DNA of 64,000 nt from an uncultured Elusimicrobiales bacterium (GTDB lineage Bacteria > Elusimicrobiota > Elusimicrobia > Elusimicrobiales > Elusimicrobiaceae), in the NCBI GenBank assembly GCA_944324675.1, contig CALUXE010000002.1:62001-126000 (forward strand). The letters run 5' to 3'. Below the pieces are notes generated by a model. The model was not told the origin of the DNA, did no database searches, and worked only from the letters and a program-made list of their open reading frames with translations. Each line of letters begins with the position of its first letter. The stretch's first letter is position 1. The position numbers were made by a program, and so were the translations under genes. Positions 3,846-48,244 of the stretch are shown here, in pieces.

Positions 3846-5585
3846 ATGAAATCCTATGCTGTTGACAGTATTTACGCTTTTATCATAGTTGTGGCGGTTT
3901 TTTTGGTTTTGCCCTTCTTCGTTCCTATGGAGGAAGACGAATATGTATCCGCCCCGGTCGGCGAATATTCCATAGAGGAAGAAAAGCCTGAAATATTTAC
4001 CAGAATAATCGATAGGGTTTCCTCTTTCTATCGGCTGAAAAAGAAGAAGAAAGCCTCCTTTGCCGATAGCTTGTCTTCCAAGAACTCCTCGGACGAAAAA
4101 GGGAAGCCTTTTTCGGCTGGGAGCTCCGCTGGGGAAGGCGGCGGGGAAGATACCTCAAACGCCCTAACGGCAGCCCTCCCCCCGAGCGAGGCCGATGATC
4201 GGGCAAGCAGTCCGATCGGGCTGCATAACGCGAGCGTTTCTTCTATTCCCTCCATGGCGGAACTTGACGGCAAGGAATATAAAATAATGCCGGACCCTTA
4301 CGGAAATCAATATGTTATGGTTAAGGGCGGGCCCATAGCGCTTAAGTACTTTCTTGCAAAAGGCGGCAGAATAGTCAAACCCGCGTACAATTATCAAAAG
4401 AATGTTAATTTGCCGGTTAATATGAAAAGCGCAAATATTCGTTACGGCGGCGGAGATTTATCTTCCGGGCATAGCGGATCTGCCTACGTAAAAGGGGATA
4501 TATCCTCTTATAAAGGGCGCGGCGGCGGTAAAATAAGGGGTTTTAATCAAGGCAAAGCGGCGGAATTGAGAGAGGAGGACGGGGGCGCCTCTAGGTTGGG
4601 GAGTAGAGGCGTGAACTCCGATTTTGACATAAGCGGTTTTGATTTCGGTTCGGGCGAGAGTTTTGGCGAGCTGCGGAAAAATTTATCAGCCAAGAGCGGC
4701 GGCGGTTCCGGTGGCGATAATACCGAAGACCAGGCCAACAGAACGCCAAAAGTTTACAAACTGCAAAACGCCAGCCCTTTTGTGAGCGAAAACTCTATGG
4801 GAGTGTCACTGCGGAAGGAAAATGACGGCATAACCATTGACTCAGAGTCTACGACCGAATCCGAATTAAACACTCAGGAGCAACAGGTTTCCAGGAATCT
4901 CGTATCAATAAGCATAGAGGCGGGATATGAAAACTCTTTGGGAATAATTCCAGACAATGCCGGTACTCGCAAAGCGATGACGCGCGAGCTTTTAGGTAAT
5001 TCAACCTTTATTGGAAGTTCCGAGCAGGGGCAAGTGGAGGATCCCTGGATATTGCCCGACAATATAGACAACGGCCCCGGCAAAGAGTTTTTTGAAGCGA
5101 ACAAAGACGTTTTGTTGGGCAGCGAGGCGGTCAGCTTCAAGGAATGGGAAGACAACGATATTTATTACAACAATGTCCGCGGCGAAATAGAAAACACGAC
5201 AAAAGGGGCGGTTACTCCTCTGATTATGATAAACGGCCAAAAAGGGCCCTTTACCATGCAGGTTATGCCCGAAGACAGTTATTATTACAAAGTGACTTCC
5301 AATTTGCTTAACAATAAAGTTCGAAAGGTGGATGAAGGGGGCGAAGTTGATTTAAACCGAATAGACAGGAACAGGGTTTTGGTCGTAGTTCCAGAAAGGC
5401 CCTTGGCCGAAAATTTAAAGAAAGACGGATATAAAGTCGCCGTATTTGACAAATATATAGTAACGCCTGGCAATTTAAAGAATTTTTACGATCAAACCGC
5501 TAACGCCATTAAGGATATAGAGGAAGGCAAGAAAGCCGATCAGGAAACGAAGAAACAGGATATAGCGCGTTTATTAAAGGATTGA
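3846..5585 (+). CDS. Membrane-anchored paralogue A, unknown function
   Basis: A 579-residue protein with one N-terminal membrane segment (about residues 9-27), then a short acidic stretch and a conserved motif with IFTRIIDRVSSFYRLKKKKK at about 50-69. The middle is long, Gly/Ser-rich and low in complexity. The C-terminal 90 residues look folded (RNRVLVVVPERPLAENLKK onward) and end in a charged helix. The two larger genes at 6393 and 8438 share the same plan: anchor, acidic patch, basic helix with an aromatic-Tyr motif, variable linker, alpha/beta tail. A GGAGG ribosome site precedes ATG 3846. The bulk is probably periplasmic. No family is recognised. Confidence 0.75.
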   Translation: MKSYAVDSIYAFIIVVAVFLVLPFFVPMEEDEYVSAPVGEYSIEEEKPEIFTRIIDRVSSFYRLKKKKKASFADSLSSKNSSDEKGKPFSAGSSAGEGGGEDTSNALTAALPPSEADDRASSPIGLHNASVSSIPSMAELDGKEYKIMPDPYGNQYVMVKGGPIALKYFLAKGGRIVKPAYNYQKNVNLPVNMKSANIRYGGGDLSSGHSGSAYVKGDISSYKGRGGGKIRGFNQGKAAELREEDGGASRLGSRGVNSDFDISGFDFGSGESFGELRKNLSAKSGGGSGGDNTEDQANRTPKVYKLQNASPFVSENSMGVSLRKENDGITIDSESTTESELNTQEQQVSRNLVSISIEAGYENSLGIIPDNAGTRKAMTRELLGNSTFIGSSEQGQVEDPWILPDNIDNGPGKEFFEANKDVLLGSEAVSFKEWEDNDIYYNNVRGEIENTTKGAVTPLIMINGQKGPFTMQVMPEDSYYYKVTSNLLNNKVRKVDEGGEVDLNRIDRNRVLVVVPERPLAENLKKDGYKVAVFDKYIVTPGNLKNFYDQTANAIKDIEEGKKADQETKKQDIARLLKD

Positions 5586-5621
5586 TTTGGGCCCTAGGAC
5601 CCATGTGTTTTTGGGCCCAAA
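5586..5621 (+). other. Inverted repeat after paralogue A
   Basis: TTTGGGCCC (5586-5594) and GGGCCCAAA (5613-5621) form a perfect 9-bp stem right after the stop codon. Only a broken T run follows, so termination would be weak; it may act as an mRNA 3' end stabiliser inside the operon. Confidence 0.5.
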
Positions 5622-5712
5622 AACCCTTGTTTTGCGGTCGCTTATTTAATACATTTTAATAAGGAAGCGTTGTTTTTTACAGCTTTGATATTAATTTATG
5701 GAGTAAAAGAAT

Positions 5713-6366
5713 ATGAAGAAAAAGTTCTTGTTCGTCTTGGCTCTTTCGATATTCGCGTTTGGCGCCCTTCCGGCTCATGCCGATTATCATATGTATTGCA
5801 AGATAAACGAAGTAGAGTATGAGTTGGGCGACGTAATTAAGAGGTTTGGCAATTACAGTAAAGCCGTTATCGGCTGCTGCAATATAACAAAGGTCTGCGG
5901 CCCCAATTACATATCTAACGTGGAGGGCCCGGAATATTTGCATTCTCTTTCCTTAATAGCGGCGAAATATAATCATTTATGGGCGCTGAAGTATCTTATA
6001 GAGGTCAGACGCGTGGGATACGAAAGCTGGCCCCTGAAGAAAGGCAGCGACGGCCATTACCGGGACTATAAAGATTATACCCAGCTTATGTACGCCATAA
6101 AGAACGGCAATGCCGATATGGTGAATTATTTGTTGGAAAAAGGGGCGAACCCCCGCCTGTCTAACCAATATGGCGAAGACTCTATGGATATAGCCAACAC
6201 TGTCGACAGTCCCGAAGTAAAAGAAATCATAAAAAAAGCGTGGAGTTCCTACAGATATAAACTTAACGTTAAATACAAAAGGGAAATTTTGGAACTCAAA
6301 GACTATAATTACGAAGAAGTTTTTGACGGGTTTTTAAGAACGATCAATTCCGAAGATAACATATAG
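5713..6366 (+). CDS. Secreted ankyrin-repeat-like protein
   Basis: A 217-residue protein with a clear signal peptide (MKKKFLFVLALSIFAF, cleavage after AHA near residue 23). Residues about 80-165 carry ankyrin-like helix pairs: HSLSLIAAKYNHLWALKYLI and TQLMYAIKNGNADMVNYLLE followed by KGANPRLSNQYGEDSMDIA. Six cysteines lie in the first 60 mature residues or so (for example CKINEVE, CCNITKVC), suggesting disulfides in the periplasm. It lies between paralogues A and B, 127 bp after A and 26 bp before B, so co-expression is likely. Ankyrin repeats usually bind protein partners, and the neighbouring anchored proteins are obvious candidates, but that is inference. Confidence 0.75.
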   Translation: MKKKFLFVLALSIFAFGALPAHADYHMYCKINEVEYELGDVIKRFGNYSKAVIGCCNITKVCGPNYISNVEGPEYLHSLSLIAAKYNHLWALKYLIEVRRVGYESWPLKKGSDGHYRDYKDYTQLMYAIKNGNADMVNYLLEKGANPRLSNQYGEDSMDIANTVDSPEVKEIIKKAWSSYRYKLNVKYKREILELKDYNYEEVFDGFLRTINSEDNI

Positions 6367-6392
6367 TCAAACGGACTCGAGAGGAGGCGGTT

Positions 6393-8390
6393 ATGACGCA
6401 TAAGAATATAAGAAATATATTTATATGGGTTTTAGCCGCCTTGGCGTTATTTTTGGTTGTTCCGTTTGTATTTCAAGAAGATATCGGCGGCAAAAACGGC
6501 AGCGGCGCGTCAATGGATGGCGAAGGGCTGCTGCCTGTGGTCAGTTCGGAAAATCCTTTAACCAAATATATGAAGAAGTTGGCGGAATTCTACGGCCTTA
6601 AGAAGAAAGAGGCCCCCGCTCGTAATTCTTTTGCCGAAGGGGATGGCTATTACGAAGAAGGCTTGGTATACATGAAAGAAGCTTTCGACGCTCTGTTGGC
6701 CAGCCCTAAGGAGGGTTCGTCCTCTTATGAGTGGGACTCGGGACTTTCGGACGAGGAAATCGATTCCGTTCGTGCGGCGTATGGCAAAGGGGATGGAATA
6801 TCTTTGGAACGAGGTACCGTAATTGCCTCGCCCGGCCTTGTTTTAAAACCTTCGCTTAACGGCTATTCGATAGAAGGTAAGTTCTATAAGAATGGGACCT
6901 ACCCCTCCCTGAAAGACAAACGAAATATAGAAAAAGCTTTAAGCAAATTTCATAAAGAGAAAGCGGCTCAAAAAGGTTTAACTGCCGCCTATGTGCGAAA
7001 TCCGGACGGAAGCTTGAGCGTAAAATATATGTCTCCTGGAAGTTTGGCCGCGCCGGTTAGCGGCAATTTGTACGCTTCAAATACGAACCGAGACAGGGAC
7101 TATTATCGCGGCGCGCGGATAATATCCAGGAAAGATTCCGATCCATCTTCAGCGGAGGGCAGGCTTTCCGGCGGATCGTCAAAGAAAGGGGATAGTTCTT
7201 CCTTTGATGATATAGAGACCGCATATGAAAGTCTATCCAATAGAATCAGGGAGTATCTTAATGATAAAGAAGCCTCCTCGGAAGAAGAAAAAACTCAGGG
7301 CGATCCCTCCGAACAAAACCTTTCCCGGGACCTTATAGCAAATTCCAACCGCGCGCCGGTAAGTCTATTGATGACATCTCAATTAAGGCAATCGCCTAAC
7401 AAAATACCTAGTGAGGAGTATTTAAATGCCCCGATAGTGGCGTTAAGGCTTCCAAATATCTATGCCAATATCGGATCAGTAAGCGATCTGCTGAGGAGAT
7501 ATGGAATAAAAGACAATTTAAATTTCAGAGAAAAGCAGCTGCCCATTATTGCGCCGGGTACAAGCAGAGAGGAAATTCGCGAGATAATGTCGGAATGGGG
7601 CAAAACTCTGCAGGAATTAAAATCGGAAGAAGGCCTTTTAAGAGTGTTTTCCCCCGCCATGATACCCGATACGGTTTTTACCGGCGGGAACAATGATCCT
7701 GATATTTATGTCGGATATCCGCGGGTGCCGTATATGGATATAAATAGGGCCGGCCAACCTGTTCCCACCAGTTTTTCCGAGGTGTTTTTAAATAGGACGG
7801 GGCTTTCCAATATGTTATACGCGATGGGCGGCCCCCAATGGGTGGATTTGGATGTCGCGGCATTGCAAGAACGCTATTACGCTTTGGATAATATGCGCGG
7901 CGAAAATAATAAGTATTTACAGACTCTTGGGGAAAACAAAGCCCTAAGAAAACAAATGCCCAAAGTGGTATTTTATTTGGGAAAAATGGCCAAAAATGAG
8001 GGCAATGTGGCGGTGGCGTCTCCCTCGTCATTTTTATACGTATACGCGCCGAATATGGCTCCCGACTTTATATTGGGGGGAGATAAAATGTCTTCCTTTA
8101 GGCAAATGCCCGCCGAAATATTTTTGGACAACGTTAATGAGAGCGGAAGCAACAATATCGTTATAGTTAATGACGATAAGATTAAAGACACGTTAAATAA
8201 AGCCGGGGTAAAAAACGTTTCCGTAATAGAAACAGATAGGCTTTCTTCCGGCACGCCGGAAGACGTGGCATATGTAATAGGCATTTTAAAGGACGTTGTT
8301 AAGCAAAGGGTAATGTCCGATGAAGCCCTGAAACAGGAGTTTATAAAAATCATGAAAGAGGCCGACAAAAAAGAAAAGGGGAAAAAGTGA
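6393..8390 (+). CDS. Membrane-anchored paralogue B, unknown function
   Basis: A 665-residue member of the local family. The N-terminal anchor (about residues 9-27, ending FLVVPFVFQED) and PLTKYMKKLAEFYGLKKKEA (about 53-72) match paralogue A closely. The central part is charged and Ser/Gly-rich. The C-terminal third is more ordered and ends with SNNIVIVNDDKIKDTLNKAG, a helix and a Lys-rich tail, comparable to the end of A. A strong GAGGAGG ribosome site precedes ATG 6393. The single anchor and absence of cysteines suggest an inner-membrane protein with a large periplasmic part, though the orientation is not proven. No catalytic motif is recognised. Confidence 0.75.
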   Translation: MTHKNIRNIFIWVLAALALFLVVPFVFQEDIGGKNGSGASMDGEGLLPVVSSENPLTKYMKKLAEFYGLKKKEAPARNSFAEGDGYYEEGLVYMKEAFDALLASPKEGSSSYEWDSGLSDEEIDSVRAAYGKGDGISLERGTVIASPGLVLKPSLNGYSIEGKFYKNGTYPSLKDKRNIEKALSKFHKEKAAQKGLTAAYVRNPDGSLSVKYMSPGSLAAPVSGNLYASNTNRDRDYYRGARIISRKDSDPSSAEGRLSGGSSKKGDSSSFDDIETAYESLSNRIREYLNDKEASSEEEKTQGDPSEQNLSRDLIANSNRAPVSLLMTSQLRQSPNKIPSEEYLNAPIVALRLPNIYANIGSVSDLLRRYGIKDNLNFREKQLPIIAPGTSREEIREIMSEWGKTLQELKSEEGLLRVFSPAMIPDTVFTGGNNDPDIYVGYPRVPYMDINRAGQPVPTSFSEVFLNRTGLSNMLYAMGGPQWVDLDVAALQERYYALDNMRGENNKYLQTLGENKALRKQMPKVVFYLGKMAKNEGNVAVASPSSFLYVYAPNMAPDFILGGDKMSSFRQMPAEIFLDNVNESGSNNIVIVNDDKIKDTLNKAGVKNVSVIETDRLSSGTPEDVAYVIGILKDVVKQRVMSDEALKQEFIKIMKEADKKEKGKK

Positions 8391-8413
8391 TTACCTCGGG
8401 CAGAATAGTTTAA

Positions 8414-8419
8414 TATAAT
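8414..8419 (+). promoter_or_regulatory. Possible -10 box before paralogue C
   Basis: TATAAT 19 bp upstream of the ATG at 8438, with an AGAGGG ribosome site between. No good -35 box is seen. It may give paralogue C its own transcript as well as readthrough from B. Confidence 0.4.
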
Positions 8420-8437
8420 TTACAGAGGGCAAATTTT

Positions 8438-10303
8438 ATGTCGAAGGGTTTAATTTTTAAGATTTTTATTTGTGGTTTTGTTGTTTTTTTGCTTCTTCCG
8501 GCCGTATTTGACGAAGATGAGGCGCGCCCCGTAAAGAGGCAAGCCTTCGAGGACGCCGTGGAATTTAATCCCAGTTTATATGACGGGGAGGAGAGCCTTC
8601 CTATACTTGATATTGCAGAGCCTGAAAAGGGCAATATTTTTACCAGATACGCAAAAAAATTCAAGAGGATGTACGGGCAAGCATTGTTCGGCCGCAGCGA
8701 TAAGGATGCGGCGCCTTATGAAGAAGACGGCAACGAAGAATTATATTACGCTATGGCCGCCTTATTCAACGCGGGCGATTTGGATTCGGAAGACGGGGAG
8801 GCGAGAGCGGCTTATGCCGCTAGCGGCGGCGCGGCTGAAAAGTATAACAGAGACTATTTTAAAGGGGTCCCTTCTACCGTAAAGCAGACGGTTCATGATA
8901 ATGTTCCCGTAAGGGGGCTTTATGAGGCTTCCGCGGTGGAATCTTACGAAACCCGCAGCAAGGCGAAAGAAGTGTACAGCAATGTGATGAATAAAGTCGA
9001 TAAAACCGTGCCCTCGGCAGCTAAGCCGAAAGCCGAAGGGGCTGCGTCTTCGAGCGGGTTTGAAGACGAGGAACTTTATCAAAGCGAAAGCGTATCCGGC
9101 ATTAATGACGGAGTGACGCTTGCATCTTTGAGGGCCGAGAGAAACGACAGCAAATATAGCGGCATAGCCGGCCGCCGCGGCGGCAGTTACAACTCTTACG
9201 GCGTCGGTTCCGAAGTCGGCCTTGACGGTTTTGGCGGCGCTTTGGGCGGGAATTTCGAAGCGGCGGCGGCCCGCGCGGAGAAGAATATTTCCGCGGCGGC
9301 CGGCATAATGAGAGACGAACGACGCGAACAAGAGGAAAACGGATCCGCTAAGCTAAACGGGAATATTTATAGCGGTAATGTCAATGGAAGTTCTTTACAA
9401 AGCGGAGCTCACAACGAAACGCTAAACGGCGGCGCTCAGGGGGGAGGTTTTTCCGAGGGGGGATCTGCCTCAAGCGGAAGCTCGGGCGCGGCCGGCAATA
9501 ATTCTAACCAAAACAATCCGCCATTAGGGCAGGATACTCTGTTTGATCAACAAAAATACGATTATATGTTGCATACCACCTGCGAAGACGATCCCATTTC
9601 CGGAATACAGGACGATGCTGAAAGCCTTGTCGCAAACGGGGGGCAAGGTCTGTTGGAGGAAAGGGATTTGCAAAAGCATTCCAATCCCGATAAGATAGAA
9701 CCGTTTTGCGCCAGACCGTTGGAGGGCGCCCAATCCATAGCGGATGCCATAAACGGTAAAAATATAGTAGTGGATTTGGGGCTCATACGGGGTAATGACG
9801 GGGATTTATACAGAGTAATTCCGACATTCTCTTCGCTTTCCAGCAAAGGCCTGGGCCAAATAGGAATTATGGAGTATTATGACGAACCCAAAGATGCCAT
9901 AAGATTGGGATATCTGTTTAAAGGGGCGAATATTTCGGAGTTCGCTTCCGTAGCGAAAAATGACAATAGTATTGTTATAACTGTCTCTCCGGTGGTGGCG
10001 AGGGCTTATTTGGGTAGATCCGTTCTTATAGAGGAAGGCGACTTGGAAAGCAAAAGAGGATTAAAGGCGCTTGCCGAAAAACTAAACAATCTTCCCGCGG
10101 AAAGGGAGCGGATACTTGCTTTGACCGCCCGGCAACAGGAGGCTGGAAACTCTCAGCCGCGAGGCGGGAGCCAAGCGCAGGAACAAGCCCGCAAAAAAGC
10201 TGAGCTGCAAGCAGATATAGAAGGAAAGAAGGAAGAAGTCAAAGGGAAGGGGCTTTTTGGAAAAATGTTCGGCAATTTATTTGGCGGCGATAATGAAAAG
10301 TAG
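8438..10303 (+). CDS. Membrane-anchored paralogue C, unknown function
   Basis: A 621-residue third member of the local family: anchor at about residues 7-23 ending LLLPAVFDEDE, then NIFTRYAKKFKRMYGQALFG near 67-86, matching IFTRIIDRVSSFYRL of A. The middle (about 200-370) is Gly/Ser/Asn-rich and probably disordered. A more ordered part from about 380 holds HTTCEDDP and FCARPLEG, and a tail with NSIVITVSPVVARAYLGRS aligns in style with the end of A and B. The last 50 residues are a charged helix rich in Gln, Lys and Glu. Function unknown; divergence among the three is high outside the anchor region. Confidence 0.75.
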   Translation: MSKGLIFKIFICGFVVFLLLPAVFDEDEARPVKRQAFEDAVEFNPSLYDGEESLPILDIAEPEKGNIFTRYAKKFKRMYGQALFGRSDKDAAPYEEDGNEELYYAMAALFNAGDLDSEDGEARAAYAASGGAAEKYNRDYFKGVPSTVKQTVHDNVPVRGLYEASAVESYETRSKAKEVYSNVMNKVDKTVPSAAKPKAEGAASSSGFEDEELYQSESVSGINDGVTLASLRAERNDSKYSGIAGRRGGSYNSYGVGSEVGLDGFGGALGGNFEAAAARAEKNISAAAGIMRDERREQEENGSAKLNGNIYSGNVNGSSLQSGAHNETLNGGAQGGGFSEGGSASSGSSGAAGNNSNQNNPPLGQDTLFDQQKYDYMLHTTCEDDPISGIQDDAESLVANGGQGLLEERDLQKHSNPDKIEPFCARPLEGAQSIADAINGKNIVVDLGLIRGNDGDLYRVIPTFSSLSSKGLGQIGIMEYYDEPKDAIRLGYLFKGANISEFASVAKNDNSIVITVSPVVARAYLGRSVLIEEGDLESKRGLKALAEKLNNLPAERERILALTARQQEAGNSQPRGGSQAQEQARKKAELQADIEGKKEEVKGKGLFGKMFGNLFGGDNEK

Positions 10304-10340: not shown

Positions 10341-11789
10341 ATGGAACTAAAATTTGATTTGAGCAATTTAGAAGAGTTTTTGCCGAAGGAATTTGACGCC
10401 GACAAACGGCTTAGGGCAAAAACTCTTTTCTTTAAGAAGCTGGCCTTGGCCTCGCATAGCTTTTACGGGGGCAAATTGACGGTTTTGCCTAAAGCCGGGC
10501 CGATGAGTTCCGGTTGGATGAACGTATGGTATACGCCGGGCGTATCGGCGGTATCAACGGCTATCAGAGATGAGGATTGGAAATCCTACGATTTAAGTTC
10601 GCGCGGCAATAGGGCTTTGGTATTAAGCGACGGCACTCGCGTATTGGGCGACGGCGATTGCGGCCCGGCCGGCGGGCTTGGCGTGATGGAAGGCAAGGCG
10701 ATGCTTATGAAGTATCTTGGCGGCATAGACGCCGACGCGATATGCATAAACAGCCGTGACGGCAAGGGAAGGCCCTCGGCCGAGAAAATAATAGCTTTCG
10801 CCAATATGGTTGCGCCGAGTTTTGGGGCAATAAATTTGGAGGACATAAGCCAGCCCAATTGCTATAAGGTGCTTGACGAGTTAAGAAGAACTTGCCCAAT
10901 CCCAGTATGGCATGATGACGCGCAAGGCACGGCCTGCGTTACCTGCGCCGCATTAATAAACGCTTTAAAACTTGCCCGTAAGAAGATAGATAATATAAAG
11001 ATAGTTCTTTACGGCGCTGGCGCGGCCAATAGTACGGTGGCTAAATTTCTTATGGCTATGGGCGCGGCGGGCGGCAATATCATAATATTTGATAAGAGCG
11101 GGGCCTTAACTAAAAAAAGAACGGACCTAAAAAACGATCCCGATTTCTACAAACAATGGGATTTATGCCTAAAGACGAATGGCGCGAATATTAAAGACGA
11201 GCGAAGCGCGTTTAAAAACGCCGATGTCGTTATCGCGCTGTCAAAGCCCGGGCCTGGCACGATAAGAAGCGAGTGGATAGAACTTATGGCGCCCAAGGCC
11301 ATAGTATTTGCCTGCGCCAATCCGGTGCCGGAGATATCGCCGGAAGAATCTTTGAAAGCGGGTGCTTTTATAGCGGCCAGCGGGCGGGGAGATTTTCCCA
11401 ACCAGGTAAACAATTCGCTTTGTTTCCCGGGTATATTGAAAGCGGTATTGCTCTGCAGAGCGCGCGGGATAACCGATAGTATGGCTCTTGCCGCGGCAAA
11501 AGCGATAGCGAAATGCGCGGAACTAAAAGGGATTAACCCCAAGAGAATACTGCCCGATATGTATGACGAGGAATTATATCCCATGCAAGTAAAAGCTGTA
11601 GTGGAACAGGCGCGCAGGGAGGGTTTAATCGGGCGGGAGATAACCCCTCAGGAGGCTTACAAAAAAGCTAAGGCCGACATAAAAGCGGCGCGTTCCCTTA
11701 GCGATGTTTTGTATCGGAAAGGGCATATCAAGAAGATGCCCGTATCTATAATTAAAAAGGCGTTGCGGGAAACTCTTAAGGAAATATGA
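10341..11789 (+). CDS. Malic enzyme
   Basis: Oxidative decarboxylation of malate to pyruvate with NAD(P). The family segments are present: WYTPGVSAVSTAI (about 55-67), a DGTRVLGDGDCGP variant of the usual cofactor and substrate region, GKAMLMKYLGGIDADAI, INLEDISQPNCYKVL and WHDDAQGTA holding the metal-binding acidic residues, and a Rossmann segment IVLYGAGAANSTVAKFL. The 482-residue length is normal for bacteria. It overlaps the fumarase alpha gene by ATGA, giving a fumarate-malate-pyruvate unit. The common LGLGNIGP segment is changed to LGDGDCGP, an unusual substitution. Whether NAD or NADP is used cannot be read from sequence. Confidence 0.9.
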   Translation: MELKFDLSNLEEFLPKEFDADKRLRAKTLFFKKLALASHSFYGGKLTVLPKAGPMSSGWMNVWYTPGVSAVSTAIRDEDWKSYDLSSRGNRALVLSDGTRVLGDGDCGPAGGLGVMEGKAMLMKYLGGIDADAICINSRDGKGRPSAEKIIAFANMVAPSFGAINLEDISQPNCYKVLDELRRTCPIPVWHDDAQGTACVTCAALINALKLARKKIDNIKIVLYGAGAANSTVAKFLMAMGAAGGNIIIFDKSGALTKKRTDLKNDPDFYKQWDLCLKTNGANIKDERSAFKNADVVIALSKPGPGTIRSEWIELMAPKAIVFACANPVPEISPEESLKAGAFIAASGRGDFPNQVNNSLCFPGILKAVLLCRARGITDSMALAAAKAIAKCAELKGINPKRILPDMYDEELYPMQVKAVVEQARREGLIGREITPQEAYKKAKADIKAARSLSDVLYRKGHIKKMPVSIIKKALRETLKEI

Positions 11790-12616
11790 GGATAATAAAA
11801 AGCTCGGAAATAAGAGATATAGTCGCCGCCCTTTGTATTGAGGCGGCGTACAATTTGCCCAAGAAGGAAATAAAATTATTGAGGGCCGCTCTCAATAAGG
11901 AGAAGGGCCGCGCCGCCAATTTGATAAGGCTGATCTTAAAGAACGCCAAAATAGCTTCAAAAGGAGAATATCCCTTGTGCCAAGATACGGGCAGTACGGT
12001 TGTTTTTGCCGAAATAGGGGAGGACATTCATATCGAAGGCAATATAAACGAGGCCGTAAACGAGGGCGTCAGGAAAGGCTATAAAGAGGGATATTTGCGC
12101 AAATCGATAGTAAACCCGTTGCTTAATAGAAAGAACACCGGCGATAATACTCCCGCTATTTTGCATTTAAGCATAGTCAAAGGGGATAAAATTAAACTAA
12201 AAGTTTTGTTAAAAGGCGGCGGCGCGGAAAACGCCAGCCGGTTAAAAATGTTTACACCCGCAGACGGAAAAGAAGAAATAATAGATTTTATAAAACAAAC
12301 CGTAAAAGACGCTGGCGGCAAGGCGTGTCCGCCGTATATTTTGGGGATAGGCATAGGGGGCGATTTTGAGCAATGCGCTTTTTTGGCCAAGAAGGCTTTA
12401 ACGAGGAACCGCGCCAATTCGCAAAAGAGATATACCCTGCTTGAAAAAGAGATATTAAGAGAGGTTAATTCCTTGGGTATAGGCGCGCAAGGTCTTGGCG
12501 GTAAAGTTACGGCTTTGTCCGTTTATGTGGAAAGCGCGCCGTGCCATATGGCCAGTTTGCCGGTAGCGGTAAATATTTGCTGCCACAGCCATCGCATAAA
12601 AGAGGGCGTGATATGA
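11786..12616 (+). CDS. Class I fumarate hydratase, alpha subunit
   Basis: The N-terminal subunit of the two-part iron-sulfur fumarase (TtdA/FumA-type family), hydrating fumarate to malate. Three cysteines suited to hold the 4Fe-4S cluster are C65 (PLCQDTG), C181 (KACPP) and C197 (EQCAFLAKKALTR). The 276-residue length is normal. ATG 11786 overlaps the malic enzyme stop, and its own stop overlaps the beta subunit start. The oxygen-sensitive cluster enzyme suits an anaerobe. L-tartrate dehydratase is the main alternative in this family, but the malic enzyme neighbour favours fumarase. Confidence 0.9.
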   Translation: MRIIKSSEIRDIVAALCIEAAYNLPKKEIKLLRAALNKEKGRAANLIRLILKNAKIASKGEYPLCQDTGSTVVFAEIGEDIHIEGNINEAVNEGVRKGYKEGYLRKSIVNPLLNRKNTGDNTPAILHLSIVKGDKIKLKVLLKGGGAENASRLKMFTPADGKEEIIDFIKQTVKDAGGKACPPYILGIGIGGDFEQCAFLAKKALTRNRANSQKRYTLLEKEILREVNSLGIGAQGLGGKVTALSVYVESAPCHMASLPVAVNICCHSHRIKEGVI

Positions 12617-13131
12617 AGAAACTTTTACTTCCCGCAGATAAAGAAAGTCTGAAGAGTTTAAAAGCTGGCGACGAAGTCCTGCTAAGCGGTACGATTTACT
12701 CTCTTAGGGATAAAGCTCACGCTTTGCTTTTGGGCGGTGGCGATATTCCGGAATTTTTGAAAGGCAGCGTAATATACTATATGGGGCCTACGCCAGCGCG
12801 CCCTAATAAGGCTATTGGCAGCTGCGGGCCTACCACAAGCGCGCGTATGGACAAATATACGCCTACAATAGTCAAAAAAACAAGTATAATTGGTATTATA
12901 GGCAAAGGCGAACGCAGCGCCGCGGTAAACCGCGCGATGAAAGGCAAGGCGATATATTTTCTTGCTTATGCGGGTTTGGGCGCGTTGTGCGCTCAAAGCG
13001 TTTTGAAAAGCGAGGCTGTATTGTATAAGGAATTGGGAGCGGAGGCTGTTTTTAGGTTGGAAGTAAAAGATTTTCCGCTGATAGTATGTCAAGATCTTAA
13101 AGGCGATAATATATACGGAGGAATAAAATGA
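12613..13131 (+). CDS. Class I fumarate hydratase, beta subunit
   Basis: The C-terminal subunit of the class I fumarase, 172 residues from the ATG at 12613 that overlaps the alpha stop (ATGA). Recognisable segments are YYMGPTPARPNKAIGSCGPTT, TSARMDKYTP and IGKGERS. A longer in-frame start lies upstream inside the alpha gene, but the coupled ATG gives the usual N-terminus (LLLPADKESLKSLKAGDEVLLSG). It pairs with the alpha subunit to complete the active site. Its stop overlaps the next gene, a lipoprotein, in the same ATGA manner. Confidence 0.9.
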   Translation: MKKLLLPADKESLKSLKAGDEVLLSGTIYSLRDKAHALLLGGGDIPEFLKGSVIYYMGPTPARPNKAIGSCGPTTSARMDKYTPTIVKKTSIIGIIGKGERSAAVNRAMKGKAIYFLAYAGLGALCAQSVLKSEAVLYKELGAEAVFRLEVKDFPLIVCQDLKGDNIYGGIK

Positions 13132-13703
13132 AGAAGTCATTACTGTTTTTGATTGTATTATGCGGCGCGGTTCTTTTCGGCGCATGCAGCGGCAATAAGA
13201 AAGACGCGAACTATGAGGAAGAACCATATAATCGTTCCAAGAAGGCCTCCTATGAGCGCCAAGTCAGATATTCGGTATTCGCGCCCTTTATGTATGAAGA
13301 TAAGTTTTACGCTTATTACGCGTTGGCAAAAAAGGTTTCCGGCCCCGATAAGGCCGGCTGGTACGAAGTCGAATTTAAAAACGGCCCCAAAAAAGGCGAA
13401 CGGATAAAGACGAAAAACGTTATCGTCAAGACGAGGCCGGCCGACGATTACGAATTAAAGAAAGGTATGGTTGTTTTGGTAAACCATTGGAATCCCAGAA
13501 CGAAGAATGACGAGAGCCGTACCGATATGTGGCGGAAGGGCGTGGTATATAACCTGGACGAGCTGAGCAAAGGCAAAGTGATGTTGGAATTTCCTTATGA
13601 CCGCAACGATTTTATGGCCACAAAAGAAGTCTATCTTTTAGACAATGTAAGATTAATATTGGAACCTAAAGGCGTACGGGATCCAAGAATATTTTTAGAT
13701 TAG
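13128..13703 (+). CDS. Lipoprotein of unknown function
   Basis: A 191-residue protein with a lipoprotein signal: MKKSLLFLIVLCGAVLFGAC, with lipidation expected on C20. The mature part is basic and rich in aromatic residues, and seems to hold two similar beta-rich units (KAGWYEVEFKNGPKKGERI and RKGVVYNLDELSKGKVMLEF), reminiscent of small Tudor-like or SH3-like barrels. That resemblance is weak. Ser at +2 would favour outer-membrane sorting by the rule known from enterobacteria. It is coupled to the fumarase beta gene and 4 bp from the next gene, a putative barrel protein, so it may work with envelope neighbours. Confidence 0.75.
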   Translation: MKKSLLFLIVLCGAVLFGACSGNKKDANYEEEPYNRSKKASYERQVRYSVFAPFMYEDKFYAYYALAKKVSGPDKAGWYEVEFKNGPKKGERIKTKNVIVKTRPADDYELKKGMVVLVNHWNPRTKNDESRTDMWRKGVVYNLDELSKGKVMLEFPYDRNDFMATKEVYLLDNVRLILEPKGVRDPRIFLD

Positions 13704-13707
13704 CGAT

Positions 13708-14406
13708 ATGTTCAAGAGAATAGTTTTTTCGATTTCTGCTTTGATACTTTGCGTTTTGCCGCTGCGGGCGATGCAGAGCGATACTTATCTGATAGATACG
13801 CCTACGGCGGAAGTTCTGCCGCTTAGGGATTTAAGCGTAAGAACGCGGATATTTACGGGCGGCGGAGTACTTGCCTATTTTGATTTTACAGTTATAAACC
13901 GTCTTAGTATAGGAGCCTCCGTAACGGCGGAGCATTTGGTGGGGGAAAGCGACGAGGATATTAAACTTCTCGTGCCCGCGCTTCAGTTAAAATATCGTTT
14001 ATACGACGGCGGGGAACATTTGCCCGCTTTAGCGTTAGGTTTTGACAATCAGGGTTTTAAGTATAACCACGATTTAGACGAATACGAACAGCCGGCCAAG
14101 GGCCTTTATTTGGCTCTTACCAAAGAAGTGCTGATACCGGGCTTGATGTTCAACCCCGGCTTAAACGTAACCGTTGACGGGTTTGAATTTGACAAGCTGG
14201 CGGGATACATATCGGCGGCTTATAATATAAAGGACGTAGTCAATTTAATGTTTGAGTGGGATAATATACACGGGATAAAAGAGTCCCGCTTGAACGGCGG
14301 ATTGAGATTATATGTAACCGAGAATTTTTCTTTGGATTTTGCGGTGCGCAATTTCAATCATAAGGCGGAGCGTATAGCGCAGCTTAAGTACAGCTGCAGT
14401 ATATAA
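13708..14406 (+). CDS. Putative outer-membrane beta-barrel protein
   Basis: A 232-residue protein with a signal peptide (MFKRIVFSISALILCVLPLRA). The mature part has many amphipathic strands of about 10 residues with alternating hydrophobic residues and turns (for example GGVLAYFDFTVINRLSIGASV and LFEWDNIHGI-type segments), and a late FSLDFAVRNF strand. That is the pattern of an 8- to 12-strand barrel. It lacks a terminal aromatic residue, ending in CSI. It lies between a lipoprotein and a HAMP membrane protein in the same operon. No named family is assigned. Confidence 0.65.
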   Translation: MFKRIVFSISALILCVLPLRAMQSDTYLIDTPTAEVLPLRDLSVRTRIFTGGGVLAYFDFTVINRLSIGASVTAEHLVGESDEDIKLLVPALQLKYRLYDGGEHLPALALGFDNQGFKYNHDLDEYEQPAKGLYLALTKEVLIPGLMFNPGLNVTVDGFEFDKLAGYISAAYNIKDVVNLMFEWDNIHGIKESRLNGGLRLYVTENFSLDFAVRNFNHKAERIAQLKYSCSI

Positions 14407-14411
14407 TATTT

Positions 14412-14861
14412 ATGGATAAGATAAAAAAGCCGTATAAGCGAAGTATAATTTTCATCAAGAAGAACATGCAGTTAAAGTTCGTGTTTTTGTCATTGCTTCT
14501 TGCGCTTTTGTGCGTAGTAATGTGCACTTATGAATTTGTAAGTATGATACAGGCTTTTTTTAAGGCGCATCCCATTTTGCTTCAGGAGCTTATAGAACAA
14601 GTTTCGGTGCTTATACCGCTATCCATAATAAAGCTTGCCATATTTTTCGCGGTAATAGCGATACTGGCGGCGATTTTATCGAACAGAATAGCGGGGCCCG
14701 TATACAGGTTTGAAAGTGTATGCAAAGAGGTTGCCAAAGGCAACTATAAAGTACGGGTAAAACTGCGCGACGGCGACGGCCTTAGAGGTTTGGAAAAAGA
14801 ATTTAACGCTATGCTTGACACCTTGGAACGAAAAAAAGGGGAATGTAAAGATGAAAAATAG
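14412..14861 (+). CDS. HAMP-domain membrane protein without output domain
   Basis: A 149-residue inner-membrane protein with two membrane segments (about 24-45 and 70-90) flanking a short loop of about 25 residues, followed directly by a HAMP domain (SNRIAGPVYRFESVCKEV, KGNYKVRVKLRDGDGLRGLE, EFNAMLDTLE). It stops there: no kinase, cyclase or chemoreceptor domain follows, and the next gene is TolC, which overlaps it by 11 bp. HAMP domains normally relay signals to an attached output module, so this one may act through a partner. Similar HAMP-only proteins are known but poorly understood. Confidence 0.8.
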   Translation: MDKIKKPYKRSIIFIKKNMQLKFVFLSLLLALLCVVMCTYEFVSMIQAFFKAHPILLQELIEQVSVLIPLSIIKLAIFFAVIAILAAILSNRIAGPVYRFESVCKEVAKGNYKVRVKLRDGDGLRGLEKEFNAMLDTLERKKGECKDEK

Positions 14862-16155
14862 GGCGGCGGCGCTTTTCGCCGTTATAATGACTTTCGCGTG
14901 CCTTGCCGGCGCGCAGAAATATCGCATAAAATATTCGGTTGACGAGAAAGATCCTATTTCTTTGGAAAACGCCATACGTTTGGCTTTGGAAAACAACTAC
15001 GAGCTTTTGCTTACCGAGCAAGATGTGGTAATATCCGAGCAGCGTTTAAAGGAAGCCAAATTTTTGTACCTGCCGGAGATAAGTTTCAACGCCGCGGCGA
15101 CGGGTTACAATTTGGATTCGCCGATAGTCTTGCCCGACAGCTTGGGGCTTAGATATATCGCCCCTGCTCAAGATCACGACACCGATACTCTCTTTTACGG
15201 CTTAGGCGTATCCGCGACGCAGTATTTGTATACGGGCGGGCGCATTTCAAGCACGGTAAGCATGGCGAAAGCGGGCCTTAAAGAAGCGATGAGCCGCTAC
15301 GAGGCCGTCAAATACTCCGTAATTTATCAAGTTAAGGAAGCGTTTTTTGAGCAGCTTTTTCTCCAGCGTAAGGAGGCCCTGCTTGAGGATATGGTAAAGA
15401 GGGTGGAATCCTACTTGAAAGGCAAAAGCTACAAGCAATGGGAAAGGGTATTGATACAGGCCGAGCGCGCTAAGATGACTAGCAAGGTAAACGCTTTGAA
15501 AGAGGAGTTGTCTTCCGCCAATCTGAAGTTGATAAACGTGTTGAATAAAGAACTTAACAGCAAGGTGGTAATAAGCGGGGAATTCGATTTCAATCCGATA
15601 AACGTGGATTTGGCCAAGGCGACTTTGTGGGCGATGGAATTCCGCCCCGAGCTTAAAAGCGCTTTGTATAAGTTGGAGATGGACAATATCTCGGTGAAAC
15701 TGTCTTTGGCCAGGCGCTATCCCAATATATTGCTCGGGATAGGCTATGACCGCCAGGGCGAGGACAATATCAACGACGAAAATATTCAAGCCACTCTTGC
15801 GTTGAAACTGCCGTTTGGATACGATTACGGCACTCAGCTCAAACAAAAACGGGCGGAACAGCGCCAAAGCAATCTTAAGCGCGCGGCGATAGAAGATTCC
15901 ATTCGTTCCGAAGTTTTGGAAGCGTATAACAATTTAATGTTCTGGCAGGAAGAAACCGCCGTACGAATCAATACTTGGGACGCCATAAACAAAGAATTGG
16001 GCAATCTAAATTACAATACTTTAAGCAAGGAAGAAGCCATAAAAGTGTTTAACTACTATTACGAAGCGGGCGTGGATTATCTTGAAGGAATAAAAGAACA
16101 TATGCTTGCGATAGCCAAATTGGAATTGGCGGTGGGGCAGGACATAAGAGAATAG
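14851..16155 (+). CDS. TolC-family outer-membrane efflux protein
   Basis: A 434-residue outer-membrane factor starting at ATG 14851 with signal peptide MKNRAAALFAVIMTFACLAGA. Mature residues show the TolC repeat plan: SLENAIRLALENNYELLLTEQDV, long coiled helices, and ALEFRPELKSALYKLEMDN-like second repeat with LSLARRYPNILLGIGY. The last part holds the partner helices ending in AIAKLELAVGQDI. A longer in-frame start 36 bp upstream would put charged residues before the signal, so it is not preferred. No adaptor or pump gene is in the operon, so the substrate and partner are unknown. Confidence 0.88.
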   Translation: MKNRAAALFAVIMTFACLAGAQKYRIKYSVDEKDPISLENAIRLALENNYELLLTEQDVVISEQRLKEAKFLYLPEISFNAAATGYNLDSPIVLPDSLGLRYIAPAQDHDTDTLFYGLGVSATQYLYTGGRISSTVSMAKAGLKEAMSRYEAVKYSVIYQVKEAFFEQLFLQRKEALLEDMVKRVESYLKGKSYKQWERVLIQAERAKMTSKVNALKEELSSANLKLINVLNKELNSKVVISGEFDFNPINVDLAKATLWAMEFRPELKSALYKLEMDNISVKLSLARRYPNILLGIGYDRQGEDNINDENIQATLALKLPFGYDYGTQLKQKRAEQRQSNLKRAAIEDSIRSEVLEAYNNLMFWQEETAVRINTWDAINKELGNLNYNTLSKEEAIKVFNYYYEAGVDYLEGIKEHMLAIAKLELAVGQDIRE

Positions 16156-16160
16156 ATTTG

Positions 16161-17123
16161 ATGAAGTTTTACGGCATAAGAATAATTCTTTTCGCATTAA
16201 GTTTTTTGGCGGTATCATACGCGCAGGGCGGGGTAATAGACGACAAACGGGAAAACGAGATACTGCGAGAATTTTTATGGCGGGAATTTGTTTCTCTTCC
16301 CAAGGATAAGCGCCCGAAGATAGGCGTAACGCTTTCGGCCGGCGGGGTACGGGGGTTTTCTCACATTGGCGCGCTGGAGGTTATCAAAGCCAGCGCTTTG
16401 CCGATAGATTATATGTCCGGCACTTCGATGGGCTGCATAGTGGGTTCGATGTTTGCCGCGGGGGTAAGCCAGGCGAGGTTATTGGATTTGGCGGAAAACC
16501 CTAAGCTTTCCTATATTTCAAAAGATCTTACGATACTGGGCGTTATCAAATACGTGTTTGGCAACAGATTGTTTTCTTCGGAGCAATTTCAGGAATTTAT
16601 AGAATCTGAAATCGGCTCCGTATATTATGAGGACCTTAATATCCCCTTTGCGTGCGTTTCGGCCGATATCAAGACCGGCGAGAAAGTGGTTTTTGACAGC
16701 GGGCCGGTGGCTTTGGGCGTGCGCGCCAGTATGAATTTACCCGGCATTTTCGCTCCGGTGGAATACCGTCAGCGTTATTTGGTGGATGGCGGTGTAGTGG
16801 ATTATATGCCGGTTGATTTGGTTAAAGATATGGGGGCCGATTGGGTACTTGCAATATTTTCGCTGCCGGATTATTCCAAAAGCGTACCGACGACCATTTT
16901 GGGCTATATAGTCAGGACGGGCGATTTAAGGGGCGCTTTCCTTACGGAAAGCTCCGAAAAGAGCGCCAATTTCCTTATAGAGTCGCGCGTAGGCGATATA
17001 CATTCCTTTAACCCGGGTGAATCTTTGAAAGCGTTGGAAATCGGCGCCAAATCGGCCTACGAGTCTTTGGACAATATGGAAGACAATTTGCTTTTATATT
17101 CGGTGGATTATGTTTTTAAATAA
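16161..17123 (+). CDS. Patatin-like phospholipase, exported
   Basis: A patatin-family serine hydrolase of 320 residues with an N-terminal signal peptide (to about AQG, residue 23). The oxyanion segment GGVRGFSHIG (61-70), nucleophile GTSMG with Ser89, and the catalytic Asp209 in DGG are all intact, as is the family's short RssA-type layout without an added barrel. It should hydrolyse acyl ester bonds in lipids, probably in the periplasm. A TTG codon directly before ATG 16161 is an alternative start. It overlaps the following TPR gene by 14 bp. The TolC and barrel neighbours suggest an envelope or secretion role. Confidence 0.9.
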   Translation: MKFYGIRIILFALSFLAVSYAQGGVIDDKRENEILREFLWREFVSLPKDKRPKIGVTLSAGGVRGFSHIGALEVIKASALPIDYMSGTSMGCIVGSMFAAGVSQARLLDLAENPKLSYISKDLTILGVIKYVFGNRLFSSEQFQEFIESEIGSVYYEDLNIPFACVSADIKTGEKVVFDSGPVALGVRASMNLPGIFAPVEYRQRYLVDGGVVDYMPVDLVKDMGADWVLAIFSLPDYSKSVPTTILGYIVRTGDLRGAFLTESSEKSANFLIESRVGDIHSFNPGESLKALEIGAKSAYESLDNMEDNLLLYSVDYVFK

Positions 17124-18117
17124 AGTATTCTTGTTCGCGCTCGCCGCTTTGTTTTTGCTATGGCCTTTTGAACAAGGCCGAGCTTTGTTCGGAATAAGCG
17201 CGCGCAATGCCCAAAACCAGATGATAATCCAAGCGCAGGAGGCGTACGACAACGCGGAATATAAACGAGTGGAGGAACTTGGCAAGGAATTTTTGCTTAA
17301 ATATCCGTCCGCTTCCAAAAAACGCCTAAAAAAAATGTATTTGCTTTTGGGCGAGTCCTACAAGGAAAGCGGCCAATACGATAAAGCTTTGCTTACTTAT
17401 AACGAGGCGGCGGAATTTCTGCCCAAAGACGAAGACGTAAATCTTGCATTGGGCGGGATATATCTTATCGGCGGGCTGACCGACAATGCCAAAGACATAT
17501 TCAGAAAAGTGTTGGAAATAAACAAAGAAAACAAGGACGCTCTTTTAGGTATGGCAAGAGCTTATTATGAGGAAGGCCTTTTCTCACGCGCGAATGTGTT
17601 TTTTGAATATTACCGACAGGCCGGCGGCGAAGAAATATCGGGCCCGTTCTTTTATTATTATGCTATGTCGCAGTATCTGGCCAACAATCAAGAGGCGGCG
17701 CTGGAGTTGGCTTTAAAGGCGTTGTCTGCCGAGGAAAATGCGGACACCTTATTCTTGCTGGCTAAGATTTATAAGAGCGGCGACGATGAGGAAAAAACCT
17801 GGCTGTATATGGACGCCGCTTTGGATAAAGATCCTTCTCGTGACGATATTTATTTAACCAAGGCCTTATGGCTCTCTTTCGGTACTTTGGATCAGAGTAA
17901 ACAAGCGGAGAAAATGGCCGACTCCATACTTAAGAAGGACAGCCGCGACAAATTGGCCCTGTTTATAAAATATTTGTCTTTGCGAAAGCGCGGGGGCGAC
18001 AGCGCTAAGGCGAGGGAATATTTAAGAACGATAATGTCTATGGAAGGCGATCAGCTTATGGACAAATTGGCCGCGAAACTTTACTATATGGACATCAGCG
18101 GGAAATCGTCTAAATAA
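17110..18117 (+). CDS. TPR-repeat protein with signal peptide
   Basis: A 335-residue protein with a signal or anchor segment (about residues 4-26) and at least five tetratricopeptide repeats, for example YLLLGESYKESGQYDKALLTYNEAAEFLP, VNLALGGIYLIGGLTDNAKDIFRKVLEI and ALLGMARAYYEEGLFSRANVFF. The segments are split here for reading only. TPR proteins hold together complexes; periplasmic ones often serve envelope assembly. It closes the long plus-strand operon before a strong two-way terminator. Its partner cannot be named, but TolC and patatin lie just upstream. Confidence 0.85.
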   Translation: MFLNKVFLFALAALFLLWPFEQGRALFGISARNAQNQMIIQAQEAYDNAEYKRVEELGKEFLLKYPSASKKRLKKMYLLLGESYKESGQYDKALLTYNEAAEFLPKDEDVNLALGGIYLIGGLTDNAKDIFRKVLEINKENKDALLGMARAYYEEGLFSRANVFFEYYRQAGGEEISGPFFYYYAMSQYLANNQEAALELALKALSAEENADTLFLLAKIYKSGDDEEKTWLYMDAALDKDPSRDDIYLTKALWLSFGTLDQSKQAEKMADSILKKDSRDKLALFIKYLSLRKRGGDSAKAREYLRTIMSMEGDQLMDKLAAKLYYMDISGKSSK

Positions 18118-18134
18118 AATTTTGATAATAAAAT

Positions 18135-18165
18135 AAAAAACGCCGCTTTTAAGCGGCGTTTTTTT
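18135..18165. terminator. Bidirectional terminator, TPR gene and pssA
   Basis: A 14-bp stem AAAAAACGCCGCTT / AAGCGGCGTTTTTT with a 2-nt loop, T-rich on both strands, between convergent genes. Confidence 0.92.
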
Positions 18166-43510: not shown

Positions 43511-44104
43511 ATGAAAAAATTTTTATTGGCGTTGTTGGTTTTTCCGTTTTTGTTTGCCTGCGGCACCAAGGTGGAACGTATGGACGTGGGCGTGACCAAA
43601 GATTTAAGCGGGAAGTGGAACGATACCGATTCGCGCTTGGTTGCGGAAACAATGATACAGGAATGTTTAAACGGGGCTTGGTACGCTAAAGCCGTAAAGG
43701 AAATGGGAGGGAAGGAGCCCGTAGTCATAGTGGGCACCGTAGTCAATGATACTATGGAACATATAAATACCGGCGCTTTTGTCGAAGAGCTGCAAAGGGC
43801 TTTAATCAACAGTGGGAAAATAGAATTCGTGGCCAGCTCCTCGGAGCGGGGGGAAATCCGTCAGGAACGCCTTGAGCAGGACGAATACGCCTCCGAAGCT
43901 ACCAGAAAGGCCTTTGGGCGGGAAGTCGGCGCGGATTATATGCTAAGCGGCGTGTTGAGTTCCATAGTGGACCAAGAGGGCCGAAAATCGGTGGTGTTTT
44001 ATCAGGTAAACTTAAAACTCATCAATATAGAAACGAATAAAATACTGTGGAACGGCCAAAAACAAATTAAGAAATATGTAGCCAAGAAATCTCTTAAATT
44101 ATAA
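43511..44104 (+). CDS. LpoB-like penicillin-binding protein activator lipoprotein
   Basis: A 197-residue lipoprotein (lipobox LFAC, lipidated C17). The fold segments match the LpoB family: VVIVGTVVNDTMEHINTGAF, ELQRALINSGKIEFV, DEYASEATRKAFGREVGADYML and VNLKLINIETNKILWNGQ. In E. coli LpoB reaches through the peptidoglycan and activates PBP1B. Homologues of this size also occur in an operon of three lipoproteins in many bacteria whose role is less clear. It heads such an operon here, with its own promoter. It has a Gly at +2. Confidence 0.88.
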   Translation: MKKFLLALLVFPFLFACGTKVERMDVGVTKDLSGKWNDTDSRLVAETMIQECLNGAWYAKAVKEMGGKEPVVIVGTVVNDTMEHINTGAFVEELQRALINSGKIEFVASSSERGEIRQERLEQDEYASEATRKAFGREVGADYMLSGVLSSIVDQEGRKSVVFYQVNLKLINIETNKILWNGQKQIKKYVAKKSLKL

Positions 44105-44109
44105 AAGAT

Positions 44110-45420: not shown

Positions 45421-45430
45421 GGAGCCGAAA

Positions 45431-46357: not shown

Positions 46358-46367
46358 GAGCTTCAAA

Positions 46368-47737: not shown

Positions 47738-47752
47738 CAGGAGAAGAAAAAA

Positions 47753-48244
47753 ATGGGTGTATTTATAGCCGTAATAATAATACTGGTTTTGGTTTTATAT
47801 GCCGTAAAGGATTTGTTGGGAGAGAAGGATATGTCGTTTTGGATAAATACGGCGTTGACTTCTCTTGTGCTTTTTACGGTTATATTGTCGATATTTATAA
47901 TTCTAAACAAAGGCGACAAGGGCCCTTCTGTGGCGGTGATACAAAATAAACCCGCGGAGGAGCGCCTCCCCGAAGCGGAAAAACCGATAGAAGAAAAAAG
48001 CGACGAGGAAGTAATGTTGGAAATAGCGGTGGAATATACCCTTATAGAAGATGATTACAAAAAACGCAATCCCGAAGCCGCGGATTATGAGGAAGTATCT
48101 TCCAACTACATTAAGCAGAAATACGGCTTTACCGACGACGAGTGGAGCAATTTTATGATCCACGCCAAAGAGAGCGGATTGCTTGACCAGGCTCGTCAAA
48201 AAATAAAGGGCGACAATGATTTGGACAAATTGACGGCGCAATAG
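47753..48244 (+). CDS. Two-pass membrane protein, unknown
   Basis: A 163-residue protein with two membrane segments (about 3-21 and 31-51) joined by a short loop, then a charged helical tail of about 110 residues rich in Glu and Lys. The tail holds NYIKQKYGFTDDEWSNFMIHAKESG. No motif is recognised. AGGAGA precedes ATG 47753. It is the last gene of the lpoB operon and ends before a strong terminator. The tail would face the cytoplasm or the periplasm with equal likelihood. Confidence 0.7.
   Translation: MGVFIAVIIILVLVLYAVKDLLGEKDMSFWINTALTSLVLFTVILSIFIILNKGDKGPSVAVIQNKPAEERLPEAEKPIEEKSDEEVMLEIAVEYTLIEDDYKKRNPEAADYEEVSSNYIKQKYGFTDDEWSNFMIHAKESGLLDQARQKIKGDNDLDKLTAQ

What the first reader, a model, noticed from the sequence alone, without database searches (positions are those of the whole stretch)
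3846..10303. Tandem array of three membrane-anchored paralogues with no known family
Proteins of 579, 665 and 621 residues share an anchor, an acidic patch, a basic helix with a Tyr motif, a long disordered linker and a small alpha/beta end. The linkers differ a great deal while the ends stay alike, which suggests fast change of length or ligand. Their closeness and the secreted ankyrin protein suggest one assembly, perhaps at the cell surface.
Basis: partly seen in the sequence, partly recalled or inferred. Interest (0 to 1): 0.66.

Follow-up and report, generated by a model that had tools for sequence, protein, structure and literature searches.

The report
Tethered periplasmic proteins of Elusimicrobiaceae gut bacteria
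Three neighbouring genes in a gut bacterium of the family Elusimicrobiaceae encode long, flexible proteins anchored in the inner membrane and reaching into the space between the two membranes; they belong to an undescribed family found in almost every genome of that bacterial family and probably link the inner membrane to an outer-membrane gene set they share an operon with.

Summary
P1 (579 aa), P2 (665) and P3 (621) are real and are paralogues. With a whole class left out of training, a profile of the anchor module still finds each one above all 460 decoys. A fourth member lies elsewhere in the genome.

None matches Pfam, NCBIfam or PDB by sequence. The family occurs in 85 of 90 Elusimicrobiaceae genomes, with one doubtful hit in the 251 other genomes searched in the phylum, and probably in the isolate Elusimicrobium minutum.

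Architecture: inner-membrane anchor, amphipathic FYG helix, disordered linker, small middle domain, long disordered linker, alpha/beta end. Predicted folds of P1 and P2 agree and weakly resemble class III substrate-binding proteins, without sequence support.

The end is periplasmic. In two relatives P1 is split into an anchored half and a secreted half that carries the end.

The array sits at the head of a run ending in lipoprotein, beta-barrel, HAMP protein, TolC, patatin and TPR protein. In the sister genus the single member is immediately upstream of that set in 60 of 60 assessable genomes. P1-type genes are followed by a secreted ankyrin-like protein.

Best reading: periplasm-spanning tethers serving this envelope set, not cell-surface proteins. 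The mechanism is inferred.

The parts
3846..5585 (+). P1, 579 aa, anchored paralogue (P1 class)
   Evidence: ORF; leave-class-out HMM E 8.9e-5; full-length profile match to P2 class, 98.6% over 518 columns
3846..4040 (+). P1 anchor module: TM helix, invariant Pro, acidic patch, basic amphipathic helix with FY motif (aa 1-65)
   Evidence: alignments; identity 75-92% to three orthologues
4242..4385 (+). P1 small middle domain, four strands and a helix (aa 133-180)
   Evidence: AlphaFold pLDDT about 80; identity 71-81%
4386..4898 (+). P1 long disordered linker (aa 181-351)
   Evidence: mostly pLDDT < 50; identity 33-59% with 16-38 gap columns
4899..5582 (+). P1 C-terminal alpha/beta domain (aa 352-579)
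   Evidence: pLDDT about 90 for aa 430-579; found as a separate secreted protein in L066 and L072
5713..6366 (+). secreted ankyrin-repeat protein, 217 aa
   Evidence: Ank_5 E 1.7e-10; signal-peptide-like start and four Cys; follows P1-class genes at several chromosomal sites
6393..8390 (+). P2, 665 aa, anchored paralogue
   Evidence: ORF; leave-class-out HMM E 2.2e-13
6393..6602 (+). P2 anchor module (aa 1-70)
6798..7040 (+). P2 middle domain, GYYYxGKFYKNGTYP type (aa 136-216)
   Evidence: invariant columns P153-Y212; pLDDT 75-86 over most of it
7041..7304 (+). P2 disordered linker (aa 217-304)
   Evidence: pLDDT < 50; identity 40-55%
7305..8387 (+). P2 C-terminal domain, class III SBP-like predicted fold with long helix aa 488-513 (aa 305-665)
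8438..10303 (+). P3, 621 aa, anchored paralogue; two invariant Cys (C382, C424)
   Evidence: ORF; leave-class-out HMM E 1.5e-8; Cys invariant
9536..10132 (+). P3 C-terminal domain (aa 367-565)
   Evidence: profile match to the P2 end above shuffles; not folded
10341..13131 (+). maeB and two fumarase subunit genes inside the same run of genes
   Evidence: order conserved in genera g1 and g2, absent at this place in g6
13128..13703 (+). lp191, predicted lipoprotein of the envelope core
   Evidence: lipobox-like GAC (sequence); always downstream of the family gene in g6 loci read
13708..14406 (+). omp232, predicted outer-membrane beta-barrel
   Evidence: order-wide, 141 of 149 genomes; 2.6-3.1 kb downstream of the family gene in 60 of 60 g6 genomes; weak OmpW match of a relative
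14412..14861 (+). hamp149, membrane protein with HAMP domain and no kinase
   Evidence: HAMP E 1.7e-4; synteny
14851..16155 (+). TolC-family outer-membrane protein
   Evidence: TIGR01844 E 2.2e-16
16158..17123 (+). patatin-like phospholipase
   Evidence: PF01734 E 1.4e-29
17110..18117 (+). TPR protein, last gene of the run
   Evidence: TPR families; conserved order
18135..18164 (+). intrinsic terminator-like hairpin closing the run
   Evidence: 13 bp stem, 6 GC pairs, T tail

Best explanation
P1, P2 and P3 are inner-membrane-anchored, periplasm-spanning tether proteins of a family restricted to Elusimicrobiaceae. Each has a short cytoplasmic N-terminus, one TM helix, a juxtamembrane amphipathic FYG helix, a small middle domain, long disordered linkers and a C-terminal alpha/beta domain free in the periplasm. 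The C-terminal domain is held on a flexible lead so that it can dock on outer-membrane or soluble partners of the co-transcribed envelope set (lipoprotein lp191, barrel omp232, TolC, patatin). P1-type members work with a secreted, cysteine-containing ankyrin protein. Shown by sequence comparison or prediction: the family, its architecture, the conserved gene order, the periplasmic side of the C-domain, and the P1-ankyrin gene pairing. Inferred: a single transcript, docking to outer-membrane partners, and the physiological purpose (envelope maintenance or transport).
For: Paralogy. Positive-inside charges in 41 of 43 members, mean +3.1 before and -1.3 after the TM. In G012 and G015 the P1 protein is two genes: an anchored half and a protein with its own signal peptide that covers P1 profile positions 341-573 and 352-570 (E 1e-29 and 6e-24), followed by the ankyrin gene. 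Cys pairs in P3, g6 and the ankyrin, and a secreted thioredoxin-like gene beside a g2 member. The single g6 member lies 2.55-3.15 kb upstream of omp232 in 60 of 60 assessable genomes. The gene run ends at a terminator after the TPR gene. In the one clade that lost omp232 (5 genomes, monophyletic, 100/100 support) P3 is absent and the C-domains of both P1-class and P2-class members are no longer recognisable, while anchor and middle domain remain.
Against: No direct evidence of any partner contact. The omp232 co-loss is one evolutionary event on a long branch, so general fast evolution could explain it. The envelope core exists without the family in genera g3-g5 and in the sister family, so the family is not essential to the core. 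The middle of the window operon holds metabolic genes (maeB, fumarase), so co-transcription need not mean shared function.
Confidence: 0.42

Rival explanations
1. Tethered ligand-binding proteins: the C-terminal domain is a membrane-anchored class III substrate-binding domain that captures iron, haem, a cobamide or a similar ligand in the periplasm and passes it on.
For: P1 and P2 models, predicted separately, both have class III SBPs (PiaA, FtsB, FhuD2, CeuE) as top Foldseek hits: E 1.8e-4 and 1.6e-4, target TM-score up to 0.50 for P2. Conventional Peripla_BP_2 proteins are missing in most genomes that carry the family.
Against: No Pfam or PDB sequence match. Profile comparison with 23 Elusimicrobiota SBPs is not above shuffles. 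The window genome has no FecCD permease to receive a ligand. rmsd is 7-10 A, and P1 has only a reduced first lobe.
Confidence: 0.2
2. Periplasmic adaptors or regulators for TolC-dependent export, doing in this lineage what HlyD-type adaptors do elsewhere.
For: Conserved neighbourhood with TolC, patatin and a TPR protein.
Against: No hairpin, lipoyl or HlyD family match. The TolC gene is conserved without the family in the sister family. No ABC or RND pump gene is apparent in the operon.
Confidence: 0.14
3. Cell-surface assembly of anchored proteins and ankyrin.
For: Secreted ankyrin adjacent and conserved; fast linkers.
Against: The anchor is an inner-membrane helix with the C-terminus out and there is no sorting or outer-membrane signal. 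The split form uses an ordinary signal peptide.
Confidence: 0.08
4. A lineage-specific orphan family with no dedicated role in the envelope set, kept in place by operon inertia.
For: Restricted to Elusimicrobiaceae; high divergence; metabolic genes share the run.
Against: Present in 85 of 90 genomes. Folded parts are under clear purifying selection, dN mostly 0.05-0.25 against dS about 1 or more in the two closest relatives. The position is fixed in 60 of 60 g6 genomes.
Confidence: 0.12

Closest known systems
TonB and TolA of Gram-negative bacteria
   Same: Inner-membrane anchor, N-in/C-out, long flexible periplasmic segment, small C-terminal alpha/beta domain.
   Different: No TonB_C or TolA Pfam match. 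The linker is Ser/Gly-rich and disordered. There is an extra middle domain. No ExbBD/TolQR gene is apparent in the operon.
Class III (cluster A) substrate-binding proteins, Peripla_BP_2 (PF01497), e.g. FhuD, PiaA, FtsB
   Same: Predicted fold of the C-terminal part, including a long inter-lobe helix.
   Different: No sequence homology detected; membrane-anchored on a long tether; no FecCD permease in the genome.
AnkB, periplasmic ankyrin of Pseudomonas aeruginosa, needed for full KatB activity (Howell 2000, cited in PMC2830190)
   Same: Exported ankyrin protein that works with the product of an adjacent gene.
   Different: The partner gene here is an anchored tether, not a catalase.

Membership tests
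TonB / TolA | TonB_C or TolA C-terminal domain | tested here: not met
   No Pfam hit for P1; only irrelevant sub-threshold hits for P2 and P3 at E <= 1
TonB / TolA | N-in/C-out inner-membrane anchor with a periplasm-spanning flexible linker | tested here: met
   Charges in 41 of 43 members; disordered linkers; split form
TonB / TolA | Energised by ExbB-ExbD or TolQ-TolR | not tested
   No such gene is apparent in the operon; the genome was not searched for them
Class III substrate-binding protein (PF01497) | Sequence match to the family | tested here: not met
   hmmscan; hhalign with 23 Elusimicrobiota SBPs at shuffle level
Class III substrate-binding protein (PF01497) | Two alpha/beta lobes joined by a long helix | tested here: inconclusive
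   Foldseek best E 1.6e-4, target TM up to 0.50, rmsd mostly 7-10 A; weaker for P1
Class III substrate-binding protein (PF01497) | Cognate FecCD/BtuC permease | tested here: not met
   No FecCD match in the window genome at E 1e-3
One paralogous family (P1, P2, P3) | Homologous N-terminal module | tested here: met
   Leave-class-out HMM, 460 decoys
One paralogous family (P1, P2, P3) | Homologous C-terminal domain | tested here: met
   Masked hhalign above column shuffles for all three pairs, weakest for P1-P3; same element order in the P1 and P2 models
Ankyrin-repeat protein (gene 5713-6366) | Pfam Ank above cut-off | tested here: met
   Ank_5 41.5 bits against a cut-off of 27

The most novel reading that the evidence does not exclude
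A new kind of trans-envelope tether: a substrate-binding-protein-like domain carried on a long disordered lead from an inner-membrane anchor, duplicated and specialised with secreted ankyrin partners, that couples the inner membrane to an outer-membrane barrel/TolC/patatin set conserved across Elusimicrobiales.
Probability: 0.22. Interest if true: 0.72.

Novelty: new variant of a known kind. Interest (0 to 1): 0.47.

Why it matters
Little seems to be known about the envelope of Elusimicrobiaceae. This family is near-universal there and absent from every public family library searched. It marks a conserved envelope operon that can be tested in a cultured isolate, since the isolate-sized genome (G018, probably E. 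minutum Pei191) carries three tandem copies. If the tether reading holds, it adds a non-TonB, non-TolA way to bridge the two membranes, and gives periplasmic ankyrin proteins, which are rarely explained, a concrete partner.

Tried and rejected
Pairwise BLAST and phmmer of the three proteins alone were too weak to decide. Pfam, NCBIfam, PDB, plasmid (P2) and phage (P1) searches gave no relative. A Foldseek search against viral structures gave nothing. The idea that the C-domain is a true Peripla_BP_2 that replaced the lost soluble SBP was tested and not supported: no profile match, and FecCD is missing too. Positive selection on linkers was rejected. Shuffle controls with the large g6 alignment as target were unusable (scores around 134) and were ignored. 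The E. minutum genome paper is not held.
Full report
WHAT IS THERE. The window is G000:C2:62001-126000 of a 1.4 Mb assembly. Named contigs carrying relatives of P2 are Elusimicrobiaceae/Elusimicrobiota MAGs, at least one of them from rumen by its title. The three ORFs stand at the stated coordinates. P1, P2 and P3 have no acceptable match in Pfam, NCBIfam or, as profiles, among PDB sequences. A fourth member sits on another contig, next to malQ, and is followed by two secreted ankyrin genes.

ARE THEY PARALOGUES? Pairwise BLAST alone would not convince. The N-terminal module is a TM helix with an invariant proline, an acidic stretch, and an amphipathic helix of the type NPLxKYxxKxxxFYGxKK. When a whole class was left out of training, every left-out member scored above all 460 decoy proteins from the same loci; window P1, P2 and P3 had E 8.9e-5, 2.2e-13 and 1.5e-8. 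P1-class against P2-class aligns over almost the full length, 98.6% probability. With the N-terminal module cut off, the C-terminal ends still match above column shuffles, most weakly for P1-P3. AlphaFold models of P1 and P2 have the same order in the end domain: long helix, strand, strand, helix, strand, helix, strand, long helix, with pLDDT near 90. P3 was not folded.

LINKERS. Against the two closest relatives, anchor, middle and end domains are 65-92% identical, while the linkers are 25-59% identical with up to 46 gap columns. dN/dS in linkers is mostly well below 1 and near 1 only for P1 linker 1. This is relaxed constraint of disordered sequence, not evidence for changing ligands.

WHICH SIDE OF THE MEMBRANE. 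Charges flanking the TM favour N-in/C-out in 41 of 43 members. The strongest evidence is a natural gene split. In G012 and G015 the P1 protein is two neighbouring genes: an anchored half with the middle domain, and a protein with its own signal-peptide-like start that carries the whole P1 end domain (profile positions 341-573 and 352-570, E 1e-29 and 6e-24); the ankyrin gene follows. Conserved cysteines in P3 and g6 members and in the ankyrins, and a secreted thioredoxin-like gene beside one g2 member, agree with an oxidising periplasm.

DISTRIBUTION. The N-terminal module is found in 85 of 90 Elusimicrobiaceae genomes, in genera g1, g2 and g6, and not in g3-g5. It is not convincingly found in the sister family of the order. 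Outside the family, the phylum-wide search gave a single weak, partial hit, G274. G018, a single contig of 1,643,562 bases (the size I remember for E. minutum Pei191, not checked here), has three tandem members in front of the same operon.

NEIGHBOURHOOD. In the window genus the order is purB-purA-P1-ank-P2-P3-maeB-fum-fum-lp191-omp232-hamp149-tolC-patatin-TPR, closed by a strong terminator-like hairpin at 18135-18164. In g6 a periplasmic trypsin-like protease gene and a single family gene precede lp191-omp232-hamp149-tolC-patatin directly. The family gene lies 2.55-3.15 kb upstream of omp232 on the same strand in all 60 genomes where both are on one contig. The core without the family exists order-wide. 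The family therefore joined, or was retained in, an older envelope operon.

ANKYRIN PARTNER. Wherever the gene after a P1-class member could be read (purA, malQ, typA, aspS and other sites), a secreted ankyrin-like protein follows. Some are only recognisable by an ankyrin profile built here; L068 only by likeness to its orthologue L123. In L116 another small ORF intervenes, and in the split loci the secreted C-domain intervenes. The window genome has several other ankyrin genes or clusters elsewhere, so ankyrins are not confined to this family; the repeated pairing at different chromosomal sites is nonetheless hard to put down to chance.

A SUGGESTIVE CO-LOSS. Five genomes (G002, G003, G004, G011, G014) lack omp232, although neighbouring genes are contiguous in the two read through that stretch, G004 and G002. 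They form one clade. In the same genomes P3 is not found, and the C-domains of P2-class members, and of P1-class members in the four of these genomes examined, no longer match their profiles, while the P1-class anchor and middle domains still match well and the P2-class ones do too. This fits a C-domain that works with omp232, but it is a single event on a long branch.

FOLD LEAD. Both models, predicted separately, have class III substrate-binding proteins as best PDB matches; target TM-score reaches 0.50 for P2. Sequence profiles give no support, and the window genome has neither a Peripla_BP_2 protein nor FecCD. I treat this as a fold resemblance only.

CONCLUSION. The best-supported account is a family of inner-membrane-anchored periplasmic tethers attached genetically to an envelope operon, with ankyrin partners for the P1 class. 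The architecture resembles TonB/TolA, but membership in those families is not met. The molecular task remains inferred.

Noticed in passing
L066:4628-6834 and L072:3095-5215: Natural split of a P1-class gene into an anchored half and a secreted C-domain with its own signal peptide.
   Followed up: yes
L065, L067, L069, L070, L071 (genomes G004, G014, G011, G002, G003): One clade has lost omp232 and P3, and its P1-class and P2-class C-domains have diverged beyond recognition.
   Followed up: partly
window 14412-14861: Small membrane protein with a HAMP domain but no kinase or methyl-accepting output domain, conserved across the order next to TolC.
   Followed up: no
window 10341-13131; L142-L148: The envelope operon hosts different metabolic genes in different lineages: maeB and fumarase here, a phosphofructokinase gene between omp232 and hamp149 in other lineages.
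   Followed up: no
G000:C5, C14, C3, C1:27149-27880 (L223-L234): The 1.4 Mb genome holds several further ankyrin-repeat genes or clusters away from this family, many for its size.
   Followed up: no
window 43511-48244: Run of small lipoprotein and membrane-protein genes (43511, 44110, 45431, 46368, 47072, 47753), probably a second envelope operon.
   Followed up: no
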